Origin: Brevibacillus sp.
GTDB lineage: Bacteria; Bacillota; Bacilli; Brevibacillales; Brevibacillaceae
Direction: 5' to 3'
DNA length: 5,314 bases
NCBI GenBank assembly: GCA_029240815.1
Contig: JARDZO010000434.1
Coordinates: 1 to 5,314 of the forward strand
Shown: in pieces, positions 2,677-5,314 of the stretch
Layout of the letters: the number at the start of each line of letters is the position of its first letter
How positions within the stretch are numbered: the stretch's first letter is position 1
Notes under the pieces: generated by a model
The model's input: the letters and a program-made list of their open reading frames with translations, nothing else
Databases searched by the model: none
Told to the model about the DNA's origin: nothing
Position numbers and translations under genes: made by a program

Positions 2677-2757
2677 TTTGGAAAACCTGGCTCCGCATTT
2701 GCTTTTCAGAGCCGCAGCTGCACTGTTGTAGACAGGAACTTACGGATTCCTATCTAC
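2677..2757 (-). repeat. Two-hairpin intergenic repeat, copy C (purR-ridA junction, diverged)
   Basis: The most diverged of three copies. In minus-strand order, hairpin 1 pairs GTAGATAGGAA (2757-2747) with TTCCTGTCTAC (2738-2728): 11 bp including one U-G wobble. The linker AGTGCAGCTG follows (2724-2715). Hairpin 2 pairs GGCTCTG (2713-2707) with CGGAGCC (2695-2689), 7 bp including one U-G wobble, and is followed by AGGTTTTCCAAAA. The last three purR codons overlap hairpin 1, including the TAG stop (2752-2750). The repeat ends 2 nt before the ridA ribosome binding site. Confidence 0.7.
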
Positions 2758-3574
2758 CAAAAAAGCTTCCGAGCTCGATTTCGATTTGCTTACCCTTGAT
2801 GTCAACATCCTGCAGCTTGGCCAATGACACGTATTCATCGACCAAGCGTTCAGATACGTCAGCTGTCGTTTCTACCAATACTCCGCACCCTACTACAGTA
2901 GCACGGAACTCTTGCAACAGGTCGATCATGCCACGCAGCGTACCGCCTGCCTTCATGAAGTCGTCCACAATCAGGACACGAGACTGCTCGGCCAGTGCGC
3001 GACGAGCAAGTGACATCGTCTGAATCCGCTTGCTGGACCCTGAAACGTAGTTAATACTTACGACCGAACCTTCCGTCACCTTGTTGTCACGGCGCACTAT
3101 GACCACAGGGACATTCAAAAACATCGCTGTCGCATAAGCGAGTGGAATCCCTTTGGTCTCCACCGTCATGACCACATCGACGTTTTTGTCCGAGTAAGCT
3201 GTAGCGAACAGCTTGCCAATCTGCGCCATAGTGGACGGATTGCCGAGAATATCGGACATGTACAGGTACCCACCTGGCAAGAGACGATCTGGATTAGCCA
3301 ATTGACCAATCAGTTCTTGCACGAAAAGCAGGGCTTCTTCTGTTTTGACCTGGGGAATAAACTTCACTCCACCGGCCGCTCCCGCCACCGTTTTCAACAA
3401 GCCAACACCCTGAACCTCAAACGCTTCTTTGATGATTGACAAGTCTTCACTAATCGACGATTTCGCCGCCCCGTATTGTTCGGCAAACAGAGTGAGCGGA
3501 ATCAGCGTATGGGGATGGGCGAGTAAGTGCTGAGTCATATCGACAAGACGAGCACTTCTACGCAATTTCTTCAT
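2750..3574 (-). CDS. purR: Purine operon repressor PurR
   Basis: A 274-residue Bacillus-type PurR: an N-terminal winged-helix DNA-binding domain joined to a phosphoribosyltransferase-like domain that binds PRPP as inducer but is not an enzyme. The winged helix covers about residues 1-73 (RRSARLVDMTQHLL, AAKSSISEDLSIIKEAF, GAAGGVKFIP). The effector domain shows VVMTVETKGIPLAYATA, NKVTEGSVVSINYVSGSS and the PRPP loop VLIVDDFMKAGGT (200-212). It represses purine synthesis and transport genes at PurBox pairs. The start ATG (3572-3574) has GGAGG (3582-3586) 7 nt upstream. A PurBox-like sequence overlaps the leader (3587-3599), suggesting autoregulation. The C-terminus ends at FFGR, about 11 residues short of the B. 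subtilis protein as I remember it, and the stop codon lies inside repeat copy C. Core motifs are intact, so it should work. Confidence 0.97.
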   Translation of the reverse strand: MKKLRRSARLVDMTQHLLAHPHTLIPLTLFAEQYGAAKSSISEDLSIIKEAFEVQGVGLLKTVAGAAGGVKFIPQVKTEEALLFVQELIGQLANPDRLLPGGYLYMSDILGNPSTMAQIGKLFATAYSDKNVDVVMTVETKGIPLAYATAMFLNVPVVIVRRDNKVTEGSVVSINYVSGSSKRIQTMSLARRALAEQSRVLIVDDFMKAGGTLRGMIDLLQEFRATVVGCGVLVETTADVSERLVDEYVSLAKLQDVDIKGKQIEIELGSFFGR

Positions 3575-3586
3575 AGCTCTTCCTCC

Positions 3587-3599
3587 AAAACCGAATATT
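3587..3599. promoter_or_regulatory. PurBox-like operator upstream of purR
   Basis: The plus strand reads AAAACCGAATATT, matching 12 of 13 positions of the B. subtilis PurBox AWWWCCGAACWWT (T in place of C at position 10). It abuts the purR ribosome binding site (3582-3586). B. subtilis operators use an inverted pair about 16-17 nt apart; no good second box is seen at that distance, so this would be a single-box or weak operator. Confidence 0.45.
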
Positions 3600-3629
3600 A
3601 TGGTGCTAATGTATCATTTATATACGGGT

Positions 3630-4508
3630 TCATGCAAGCATTTCCCCTTCTTGCGCACCTAACATTCGGGCAACAAATACATCTTTCACAAATCCACGCA
3701 ATGCGTTGTATATCCGATGCACCTTAGCTTCCTTCTGTACGAGTGCAAATACAGTAGGACCGCTCCCTGACATCAGTACACCATCAGCTCCTGATGCCAT
3801 CATCAGTTCCTTGATCTGCCGTACTTGCGGATGGAGCGCCAGCGTGACATTTTCGAGCACATTTCCGAGAGATTGACACATTAACGAGAAGTCTTGGTCC
3901 TCGATTGCCATCAGCATTTCACCCGTCGGTGGATGGTCGGCAATCTCCGGCACTCGCAGATTCCCGTATACATCTGCTGTCGACACACCAATCGGTGGCT
4001 TGGCGAGAATGACCCAGCACGGTGCTGGAGGTCCCAGATGGGTAATCTGTTCGCCGCGACCCTTTGCCAGCGCCGTTCCTCCGTACACACAGAATGGAAC
4101 GTCAGAGCCAATCTCAGCTCCCACGGCCGCTAACTCGTCAAGGCTCAACCCGAGATTCCATAATTGATTCAGCCCGCGCAGCGCTGCTGCTGCATCACTG
4201 CTGCCCCCTGCCAGGCCCGCTGCAACGGGGATCTGTTTATCGATATACAAATGCACGCCTTCGCGTACATGATAGCGTTCTTTTAATAGGACCGCTGCTT
4301 TATACGCGTGATTGCGGATATCATCTGGTACGAAGCTAGCAGAGCAGTCCAGCGTTATCTCTCCATCTCCGCGTAGAGTCAGATCTACACGATCCGCCAA
4401 GTCTACGGTAGTCATCACCATTTCCACTTCGTGATAACCGTCCGGCCGCTTGGCGAGAACATCAAGAGTTAAATTGATTTTGGCCGGAGCTTTGACCGAG
4501 ATACGCAC
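3630..4508 (-). CDS. ispE: 4-diphosphocytidyl-2-C-methyl-D-erythritol kinase (IspE)
   Basis: A 292-residue GHMP-superfamily kinase that phosphorylates CDP-methylerythritol with ATP in the MEP pathway, giving isoprenoid precursors for undecaprenyl phosphate and quinones. Visible motifs: [12 protein letters not shown] (6-17) with the substrate-binding lysine K10, [14 protein letters not shown] (residues 21-34), the ATP-binding loop [14 protein letters not shown] (94-107), catalytic aspartate D136 in GSDVPF, and the third GHMP motif MSGSGPTVF (246-254). The GTG at 4508-4506 is chosen over the in-frame GTG at 4517 for two reasons: GAGGTGA (4520-4514) lies 5 nt upstream of it, and the protein then begins (M)[12 protein letters not shown], in register with B. 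subtilis [13 protein letters not shown]. It sits between sspF and purR as in Bacillus. The 55-nt gap to purR has no hairpin terminator, so read-through into purR is likely. Confidence 0.97.
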
Positions 4509-4513
4509 GTTGT

Positions 4514-4520
4514 TCACCTC
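4514..4520 (-). promoter_or_regulatory. Ribosome binding site that sets the GTG start of ispE
   Basis: GAGGTGA (4520-4514) lies 5 nt before the GTG at 4508. An upstream in-frame GTG (4517-4515) lies inside this site, and the sequence before it has only weak complementarity to the 16S rRNA end. Confidence 0.75.
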
Positions 4521-4549
4521 TGCCTACGTTCTAAATTTCCTAGTCTCTT

Positions 4550-4558
4550 ATTGTAGCA
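4550..4558 (-). promoter_or_regulatory. Candidate extended -10 promoter of ispE
   Basis: The minus strand reads TGCTACAAT (4558-4550), an extended -10 (TGnTATAAT) with one mismatch, about 42 nt before the GTG start. No good -35 is seen 16-18 nt upstream (TGGCAT-like at best). An ispE promoter is expected here because sspF, the preceding gene, is spore-specific and ends in a terminator. Confidence 0.4.
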
Positions 4559-4637
4559 TAGGCATTCTCTTCCATGCCACTCGATCGCATAAAACAATAT
4601 GATCGGGAAGATTATGACGGTTTAGAAAATATCGATC

Positions 4638-4722
4638 TTTAGAAAACTCGGCTACGCCAAGCTTTTTGGCGAATACCTAGTTGCACTTATACTGGATAGA
4701 AAAACTATAAATTCCTATCTGT
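4638..4722 (-). repeat. Two-hairpin intergenic repeat, copy A (sspF-ispE gap)
   Basis: On the minus strand, hairpin 1 pairs GATAGGAA (4719-4712) with TTTCTATC (4702-4695): 8 bp including one G-U wobble, with a 9-nt loop. The linker ATAAGTGCAACTA follows (4690-4678). Hairpin 2 pairs CGCCAA (4671-4666) with TTGGCG (4660-4655) and leads into TAGCCGAGTTTTCTAAA. Shared blocks with copy B (plus strand): TTAGAAAACTyG, CTACGCCA, TGGCG, TAGTTrCACTTAT and TATAAATTCyTATC. It lies just beyond the sspF terminator. Confidence 0.85.
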
Positions 4723-4751
4723 ACAAAGAAAAGACCGGGTTTTCCCCGGCC
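4722..4751 (-). terminator. Intrinsic terminator of sspF
   Basis: On the minus strand CCGGG (4749-4745) pairs with CCCGG (4739-4735) across a short A-rich loop, followed by TCTTTTCTTTG. It lies 11 nt after the sspF stop and directly before repeat copy A. It fits a single-gene spore transcript. Confidence 0.75.
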
Positions 4752-4762
4752 TCGCCAACGAG

Positions 4763-4945
4763 TCATGTAGTATGCTGTTTGGCCAATGCTTCCTCGGCAA
4801 TCTGAATAGCGCGTTTGACTATGTTTCCTGCGTCACGCGTCGTGATGGCACCCCAGCCCTCGGCTTTCACCGTATCGTAAAATCCAAGCTCCTTGGCGAT
4901 CTCCATCTTGAACTGCTCAGACATAATGCCTCGTCTGCGACCCAT
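4763..4945 (-). CDS. sspF: Small acid-soluble spore protein, alpha/beta type, SspF
   Basis: A 60-residue protein that is highly similar in register to B. subtilis SspF (61 residues): [19 protein letters not shown], then [33 protein letters not shown]. Alpha/beta SASPs are made in the forespore, coat and protect spore DNA, and are degraded at germination. The start ATG (4943-4945) is preferred to one 27 nt upstream: GGGGAGG (4957-4951) lies 5 nt before it, and the family begins MGRRR. The longer start would put the ribosome binding site inside the gene. A sigma-G -10-like CACACTA (4980-4974) lies upstream, but no good -35 is seen at 17-18 nt. It lies between veg and ispE as in Bacillus and has its own terminator. 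Confidence 0.96.
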
Positions 4946-4950
4946 AACAT

Positions 4951-4957
4951 CCTCCCC
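4951..4957 (-). promoter_or_regulatory. Ribosome binding site that sets the sspF start
   Basis: GGGGAGG (4957-4951) lies 5 nt before the ATG at 4945. It decides between this start and an upstream in-frame ATG at 4972-4970, which would add nine residues (MCQREGEDV) not found in the family. Confidence 0.8.
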
Positions 4958-5040
4958 TTCTCGTTGACACAAGTAGTGTGTGCAACAAAGGGGCGCTTCA
5001 ATCTATTTTGAGGTGGCCGTCAGCAACCGAATATTTGGCA

Positions 5041-5119
5041 TTAGAAAACTTGCCTACGCCATTTCTGGCGTAGCCGTAGTTACACTTATGCGAATAAGAA
5101 TTTTATAAATTCTTATCGT
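5041..5119 (-). repeat. Two-hairpin intergenic repeat, copy B (veg-sspF gap)
   Basis: The copy with the best-formed hairpins. On the minus strand, hairpin 1 is a perfect 9-bp stem (ATAAGAATT 5116-5108 with AATTCTTAT 5102-5094, 5-nt loop). The linker ATAAGTGTAACTA follows (5089-5077). Hairpin 2 is a perfect 8-bp stem (CTACGCCA 5073-5066 with TGGCGTAG 5061-5054) closed by a GAAA loop, then GCAAGTTTTCTAA. It begins just beyond the T-tract of the veg terminator and ends about 95 nt before sspF. Confidence 0.85.
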
Positions 5120-5154
5120 AAAAATAAAACAGTAGAACCCGGGGGGCTCTACTG
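5117..5154 (-). terminator. Intrinsic terminator of veg, overlapping its stop codon
   Basis: On the minus strand CAGTAGA (5154-5148) pairs with TCTACTG (5136-5130), with an inner CCC/GGG pairing, then TTTTATTTTTACG. The veg TAG stop (5151-5149) lies within the left arm. The T-tract runs into the start of repeat copy B. Confidence 0.85.
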
Positions 5155-5314
5155 TTGTACAAATGTGATGCGGATGTGCTGATTCTCACGGCACACCGTC
5201 AACTCTACAGTTTCTGTCAAGATGTCCGCATAGCTGTAAGAAACCCGCTCGAAAAGTTGATCATCGTCTAGCTTTACTACAAATACTGATGGGTATGTTT
5301 CTTCGAGGATGCCA
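5149..5314 (-). CDS. veg: Veg protein, C-terminal part (partial)
   Basis: Partial at its 5' end: 54 residues and the stop are present, where B. subtilis Veg is about 86. The fragment begins [18 protein letters not shown] and continues [20 protein letters not shown], close to the B. subtilis Veg C-terminal half; the last 15 or so residues ([14 protein letters not shown]) differ. Veg is a small, strongly expressed protein reported in B. subtilis to promote biofilm formation by countering SinR. In B. subtilis veg also precedes sspF on the same strand, supporting the assignment. The stop codon lies inside the terminator stem, so the end of translation and of transcription are closely spaced. Start, ribosome binding site and promoter are outside the window. 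Confidence 0.93.

What the first reader, a model, noticed from the sequence alone, without database searches (positions are those of the whole stretch)
2677..5119. Repeat of about 80 bp with two hairpins in three gaps of one gene block, all in the same orientation
Copies at 2677-2757 (C), 4638-4722 (A) and 5041-5119 (B) share the same order of parts. On the minus strand these are an A/T-rich hairpin ending in GATARGAAT-like sequence, a linker around AGTGYARCT, a GC-rich hairpin (GGCGTAG-like), and RRGTTTTCYAAA. A and B share several identical blocks of 8-13 nt; C is more diverged. Three copies in 2.5 kb suggest a family dispersed in the genome, either a small non-autonomous element or a regulatory RNA module. 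I do not recognise it as a named family.
Basis: partly seen in the sequence, partly recalled or inferred. Interest (0 to 1): 0.75.

Follow-up and report, generated by a model that had tools for sequence, protein, structure and literature searches.

The report
Small structured repeat targeting transcription terminators
The three repeats belong to a family, apparently undescribed, of tiny non-coding two-hairpin mobile elements in chromosomes of Brevibacillus and other Bacillales, which mostly settle right after the T-rich end of transcription terminators and nearly always on one replication strand, moved by an enzyme that is still unknown.

Summary
A profile built only from other genomes finds exactly the three window copies (78.5, 61.8, 29.2 bits; best in 1000 simulated windows 10.9). 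They belong to a dispersed family: a covariance model hits 22 of 26 genomes of the genus (0-71 copies) and 10 of 36 genomes of Brevibacillus, Aneurinibacillus and other Bacillales (up to 104; one genome in both sets). The two hairpins are kept by compensatory changes (22 of 27 pairs).

Of 77 copies, 55 start right after an intrinsic terminator, against 2/77, 4/77 and 39/2000 in controls. In one chromosome 69 of 71 copies point with replication, but only 69 of 100 strong terminators do. Sister species have the same terminator empty. Copy C entered a T6 tract in the last purR codons and shortened PurR.

So this is a non-autonomous mobile element, most likely inserted into single-stranded lagging-strand template. 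Its enzyme is unknown: Y1/Y2 transposases and reverse transcriptases do not track copy number, and a genome with about 49 near-identical copies showed none. Targeting resembles group IIC introns; sequence does not. No Rfam match; eight paper searches found no description.

The parts
5041..5120 (-). Copy B of the element (TAC...CTAA), in the veg-sspF gap; one free base (5121) separates it from the T-tract
5122..5159 (-). Intrinsic terminator behind veg (inverted repeat 5125-5140 / 5144-5159 and T-tract 5122-5129) that copy B follows
   Evidence: (inverted repeat I2); kept without an element in B. reuszeri NIT02 (L005), B. parabrevis and B. porteri
4639..4723 (-). Copy A of the element (TAC...CTAA), in the sspF-ispE gap, ending 121 nt before the ispE start; one free base (4724) separates it from the T-tract
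4725..4751 (-). Intrinsic terminator behind sspF (hairpin and T-tract) that copy A follows; limits read by eye
   Evidence: counted as terminator by the script; orthologous terminator without the element in B. centrosporus, B. parabrevis, B. porteri and B. formosus
2678..2758 (-). Copy C, more decayed, inserted into the last codons of purR; its first bases supply the purR stop codon (2750-2752); 5' limit uncertain by one base
2759..2764 (-). T6 tract in the SFF codons of purR, the insertion target of copy C; no terminator called here

Best explanation
A family of non-autonomous, non-coding mobile elements of about 80-90 nt (also forms of about 106 and 138 nt). The unit is TAC-[AT-rich hairpin]-GTA, TAAGKGCAAC, [G+C-rich hairpin with an AAC/GTT base], TTTTCTAA. 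Shown: dispersal, conserved fold, an insertion point one base after a T-tract that is usually the U-tract of an intrinsic terminator, the same orientation as that terminator, a strong bias to one replication strand, turnover between species, tandem copies. Inferred: at the replication fork the terminator forms a hairpin in the single-stranded lagging-strand template, and a trans-acting enzyme that recognises the folded element (as single-stranded DNA, or less likely as RNA) joins a copy just behind the T-tract without duplicating target bases. The enzyme is not identified. Landing behind terminators makes insertions nearly harmless, so copy number can grow.
For: Family: 22 of 26 genus genomes, 10 of 36 further handles. 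Fold: 90.3% of cells paired, 22 of 27 pairs with changes on both sides, 264 such cells against a shuffled mean of 77.7 (alignment fitted to the model); on the freely made alignment 13 pairs and 40 cells against 13.2. Target: 55 of 77 against 2/77, 4/77 and 39/2000; at least 5 T in the 8 bases before the free base in 58 of 60 copies. Strand: G018 69 of 71 against 187 of 293 ORFs (p 1e-11) and 69 of 100 strong terminators (p 2e-9); G010 15 of 15 listed, G019 15 of 16, G011 37 of 42 at its best switch point. Empty sites. Insertion in a gene end. Near-identical copies: 42 of 49 in G023 share an identical 24-nt segment. Tandem copies.
Against: No mobilising enzyme and no autonomous copy was found. 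Movement has not been seen within a species. 22 of 77 copies have no terminator called at their edge. G015 has only 3 copies, 2 of them co-oriented if its terminus lies near mid-chromosome (read, not scripted), and 5 of 42 in G011 are against the rule. The exact junction is ambiguous by a base, and flanks at most empty sites have diverged, so absence of a target duplication is not proved base by base. RNAalifold predicted no structure for the first alignment.
Confidence: 0.7

Rival explanations
1. A parasite of group IIC introns, a bacterial counterpart of SINEs: a small RNA is inserted into the same terminator targets by an intron-encoded reverse transcriptase acting in trans.
For: Same target and strand preference as bacterial-C introns (PMC8919778, passages; PMC10190682, passages). 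Group II introns of the same genomes sit right after terminator T-tracts in the four loci read. No target duplication seen. Reverse transcriptase genes are present in 7 of the 11 copy-bearing genomes tested.
Against: No RVT_1 match in G023, G057, G002 or G019, with 48, 104, 16 and 16 copies; the genomes G006 (29 matches), G013 (10) and G017 (6) have no copies. No sequence likeness to the intron loci.
Confidence: 0.12
2. A miniature derivative of an IS200/IS605-type element, or a REP-like repeat, moved as single-stranded DNA by a Y1 (HUH) transposase acting in trans.
For: Hairpins at both ends, no inverted repeats, no target duplication seen, insertion behind a short fixed sequence on the lagging-strand template (that IS200/IS605 elements do this is recalled). 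Y1 genes are numerous in G011 (13 matches) and G026 (11), which have 42 and 15 copies.
Against: No Y1_Tnp match in G001, G018 or G023, with 55, 71 and 48 copies; zero-copy genomes G017 and G027 have Y1 genes. The Y1, TnpB and RAYT-like loci examined do not carry the ends of the element; three of 41 loci hold a copy 0.8-1.4 kb downstream of the TnpB domain, in the gene's orientation, not at the gene's end.
Confidence: 0.13
3. A regulatory RNA module (3' UTR or leader element) kept by selection.
For: Strongly conserved fold with covariation; orientation of the preceding gene.
Against: Sites are not conserved: copy A is absent in the five relatives aligned and the G019 copy in four. Copy numbers run from 0 to 71 in one genus. 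Orientation follows replication more strictly than genes or terminators do. Copies lie behind the point where transcription should stop.
Confidence: 0.04

Closest known systems
Bacterial-C (group IIC) introns
   Same: Insertion immediately after intrinsic terminators and strong replication-strand bias (PMC8919778, passages); DNA stem-loop as target (PMC10190682, passages). Group II introns of the same genomes sit after terminator T-tracts (four loci read).
   Different: The element is about 85 nt against about 1.9 kb (L236, read), has no reverse transcriptase, no match to Rfam's intron models and other ends.
IS200/IS605-derived miniature elements and REP/REPIN repeats
   Same: Short, hairpin-bearing, non-coding, no target duplication seen, strand-linked behaviour (general features recalled; PMC3733652 and PMC3116915 seen only as search listings).
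   Different: No Y1 gene in three of the richest genomes; hairpin feet vary with compensation instead of carrying one fixed tag.
Classical bacterial MITEs
   Same: Small, non-coding, intergenic, in many copies.
   Different: No terminal inverted repeats and no target duplication seen; fixed target behind T-tracts.
Catalogued stem-loop repeats Bhal-1, Bant-1 and bcr1 of Bacillus
   Same: Intergenic, structured; Bhal-1 74 bp with 36 copies, Bant-1 72 bp with 104 copies (tables of PMC2267715, passages).

Membership tests
Group II introns | Conserved intron domains (Rfam models) | tested here: not met
   No Rfam match on the window or on copies in L091, L095, L096, L086, L192, L310, L186 at or above cut-off, while introns in L234, L236, L239, L240 are matched
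Group II introns | Bacterial-C targeting: directly behind terminators, one replication strand | tested here: met
   55 of 77 copies behind terminators; 69 of 71 on one strand in G018
Group II introns | A reverse transcriptase in the host genome | tested here: not met
   RVT_1 in 13 of 21 genomes, but none in G023, G057, G002, G019
IS200/IS605 or REP-type miniature element | A Y1 transposase in the host genome | tested here: not met
   Absent in G001, G018, G023; present in 5 of 10 and 13 of 18 genomes
IS200/IS605 or REP-type miniature element | Ends shared with an autonomous tnpA/tnpB element | tested here: not met
   No match at the ends of Y1, TnpB or RAYT-like loci (41 loci; 25 loci; 20 loci); not all such loci of each genome were fetched
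IS200/IS605 or REP-type miniature element | No target duplication, strand-specific insertion behind a fixed short sequence | tested here: inconclusive
   T-tract target and strand bias met; junction bases ambiguous by one base
IS91/Helitron-like (Y2) | A Y2 transposase in the host genome | tested here: not met
   3 of 21 genomes only (G018, G011, G055)
Classical MITE | Terminal inverted repeats and target duplication | tested here: not met
   None in the alignments; by inspection
TnpB omega-RNA | Lies at the 3' end of a tnpB gene | tested here: not met
   3 of 41 Y1/TnpB loci hold a copy, each 0.8-1.4 kb beyond the TnpB domain
Bhal-1 / Bant-1 / bcr repeats | Sequence similarity | not tested

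The most novel reading that the evidence does not exclude
A new class of minimal mobile nucleic acid in Bacillales: a folded strand of about 85 nt that enters single-stranded DNA at replication forks behind terminator hairpins, like a group IIC intron, but is served by an enzyme outside the known Y1, Y2 and reverse-transcriptase families, and has spread through several genera to about 100 copies in one chromosome.
Probability: 0.33. Interest if true: 0.87.

Novelty: new variant of a known kind. Interest (0 to 1): 0.7.

Why it matters
Nearly harmless insertion behind terminators is known from group IIC introns. Here an element some twenty times smaller shows the same targeting with a very strict strand rule, in genomes where the usual enzymes were not found. 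Identifying what moves it would reveal either a new ssDNA or RNA mobility system, or a known one that serves parasites in trans. The copies also record fork direction, and they can alter genes: PurR of this lineage has lost its last residues to copy C.

Tried and rejected
Rfam: nothing in the window; copies in four loci at E up to 5 gave six weak matches, all below cut-off; long variants gave none. TnpB omega-RNA: rejected, see membership test. Reverse transcriptase, Y1 and Y2 as drivers: no tracking. Autonomous copy: the 5' and 3' end patterns in G023 (49 places each), paired by reading, left three unpaired 5' ends (two at contig ends, one with a decayed rest) and three 3' ends with decayed or missing 5' parts; none flanked an ORF as an end pair. 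Half-hits in G019, G003, G018, G001, G011 and G026 were short, tandem or long variants. Viral contigs: four patterns, exact matches only, no hit. Phages: one query (copy B), none. Plasmids: four queries; 11 records with short weak matches, one 60-nt match, none. Papers: eight searches, seen as listings, gave no description of this family; the sequence-string search listed no paper that looked relevant among 25 of 48. Passages only were read of PMC2267715, PMC8919778, PMC10190682 and PMC10969869. My pre-check thought that copy A is simply empty in all relatives aligned was corrected: B. reuszeri has about 70 nt of other sequence there.

Limits: the genome searches scored at most 150 candidates a genome (123; 40) and cut long lists, so copy numbers are lower bounds. 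One search used 77 of the 79 matches (dropped: L087 1449-1531, an inverted echo of the hairpins, and L192 913-998, weak); some of the 77 are orthologous copies (L086/L160/L180; L167/L168) and three are the window's. One search chose 60 copies by a pattern that demands GTTTTCTAA, so those letters are conserved by construction; the flanks are not. One search searched genomes of 36 of the 80 loci; one of them (G025) is also among the 26. One search used all rows for G018, G019 and G011 but only the 15 listed of 27 for G010, and left out G015 (3 copies). The switch point for G011 was chosen to fit best. The p-values treat copies as independent.
Full report
The window carries, mostly on the minus strand, veg, sspF (an alpha/beta-type small acid-soluble spore protein), ispE, purR, ridA/yabJ, spoVG and glmU, with a CobW-family gene on the plus strand (Pfam matches; gene names by match and gene order). 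The nearest relative found is Brevibacillus centrosporus (IspE 94% identical). The window's own genome is not held.

Observation. The three copies align over their whole length. A profile made from 30 copies of other genomes finds exactly these three places with 78.5, 61.8 and 29.2 bits; 1000 simulated windows reach at most 10.9. So copy C is a real, decayed member.

Structure. Hairpin 1 is A+T-rich, with a foot TAC/GTA that changes with compensation (GTAG/CTAC, GCAG/CTGC and others). Hairpin 2 has a base AACT/AGTT or AACC/GGTT. On 79 copies 90.3% of cells pair, 22 of 27 pairs show changes on both sides, and 264 cells do, against a shuffled mean of 77.7 (this alignment was fitted to the model). 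On the freely made alignment of 29 copies the figures are 90.2%, 13 pairs and 40 cells against 13.2. RNAalifold returned no structure for that alignment. Longer variants carry an extra module of about 50 nt after GCAAC (G018, G019), and G023 has a 106-nt form.

Insertion site. Of 77 copies, 55 have a terminator (hairpin and T-tract) ending at their first base, against 2 of 77 stretches ending 60 nt downstream, 4 of 77 inverted at the 3' edge, and 39 of 2000 random positions in G018. Of the other 22, several, copy C among them, have a T-tract without a hairpin that the script accepts. In 60 copies the bases before the element are a T-tract followed by one free base (G 50%, A 37%), then TAC; 58 of 60 have at least 5 T in the 8 bases before the free base. 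Further out conservation ends, except for T in 77% at the first base downstream. Tandem copies join CTAA directly to TAC, which fixes the unit up to one base.

Presence and absence. Copy A: B. centrosporus, B. parabrevis, B. porteri and B. formosus have the sspF terminator without an element; B. reuszeri has about 70 nt of other sequence there in which the profile found no copy. A G019 copy: the same terminator is empty in G001, G002, G004 and G029. Copy C: in eight relatives (L002-L009) PurR ends GSFFENRGE; in the window and B. centrosporus it ends GSFFGR, because an element entered the T6 tract of the SFF codons and brought a stop codon (alignment; the script found no end for three more distant loci). 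B. centrosporus keeps a decayed relic there, so C is older than that split. In gap B B. centrosporus has sequence that resembles, by eye, a relic of the long variant. Two B. reuszeri strains have a copy in another gap of the same block, between yabJ and spoVG.

Strand. In the complete chromosome G018, 69 of 71 copies point with replication. In 400 kb sampled from the same chromosome 187 of 293 ORFs do (p 1e-11), 307 of 581 terminator-like sites by a loose rule and 69 of 100 strong terminators behind ORFs (p 2e-9). GC skew in all 20 samples agrees with the replichores assumed. Other chromosomes: G010 15 of 15 listed copies (27 in all), G019 15 of 16, G011 37 of 42 at the best switch point; G015 has three copies, two of them co-oriented if the terminus is near mid-chromosome (read). 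An element bound to terminators should follow terminators; it follows the fork more strictly, which points to single-stranded lagging-strand template as the substrate. This last step is inference.

Amplification. Among 66 copies from genomes with at least two sampled, 38 have their nearest neighbour in the same genome (shuffled mean 3.2, maximum 12). In G023, 42 of 49 copies share an identical 24-nt 5' segment.

What moves it. Y1_Tnp: in 5 of 10 genomes and 13 of 18; none in G001, G018, G023; 13 matches in G011 and 11 in G026; present also in zero-copy genomes such as G017 and G027. RVT_1: in 13 of 21; none in G023, G057, G002, G019; most in G006 (29) and G013 (10), which have no copies. Y2_Tnp: 3 of 21. 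The loci of these genes that were examined do not carry the ends of the element. The search for split ends found no autonomous copy. So the enzyme is unknown, diverged, on unassembled sequence, or lost since.

Comparison. The targeting is that of bacterial-C group II introns: immediately after terminators, and strand-biased (PMC8919778, passages); their RNP recognises a DNA stem-loop (PMC10190682, passages). Group II introns of the same genomes sit after terminator T-tracts in the four loci read. The element is not such an intron: no intron model matches, it is too short, and its ends differ. It is not a classical MITE, and membership in IS200/IS605, REPIN or IS91 is not supported. Bhal-1 and similar catalogued repeats could not be compared.

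Verdict. Observation confirmed; a real mobile repeat family, apparently undescribed within the searches made, of a known broad kind (non-autonomous structured repeats) but with an unusual target and strand rule and no known mover.

Noticed in passing
G010:C1 (Aneurinibacillus sp. Ricciae_BoGa-3), e.g. 399740-403415, 1417847-1421518, 1443450-1447124, 2365159-2368832, 3336778-3340470: Reverse transcriptase genes appear split in two parts (177-190 aa and about 309 aa frames) about 3 kb apart at several places, as if one insert sits in a repeated group II intron gene.
   Followed up: no
G006 (B. panacihumi W25, locus L010) and G013: 29 and 10 reverse transcriptase matches but no copy of the element; group II introns and the element use the same kind of site, so they may compete.
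   Followed up: no
L192, L193-L197 (G018), L310 (G019): Long form of the element with a module of about 50 nt ending in a GTGCCC-TTT-GGGTAC hairpin between the two conserved hairpins; shorter versions of the module occur in L315, L316 and L309.
   Followed up: partly
window 2750-2773: PurR of the window and of B. centrosporus ends GSFFGR instead of GSFFENRGE; the stop codon lies inside copy C.
   Followed up: yes
CP053689.1 35878-35937 (locus L255): A plasmid recorded as Arthrobacter citreus holds a 60-nt match (80%) to the Bacillus form of the element; the record may be a misnamed Bacillaceae strain, which was not tested.
   Followed up: partly
G023:C2:258-471, C37:118203-118416, C77:22570-22783: Head-to-tail dimers of the 106-nt form; two of the three, and C46:255-362, share the same upstream sequence, perhaps a repeated operon end.
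   Followed up: partly
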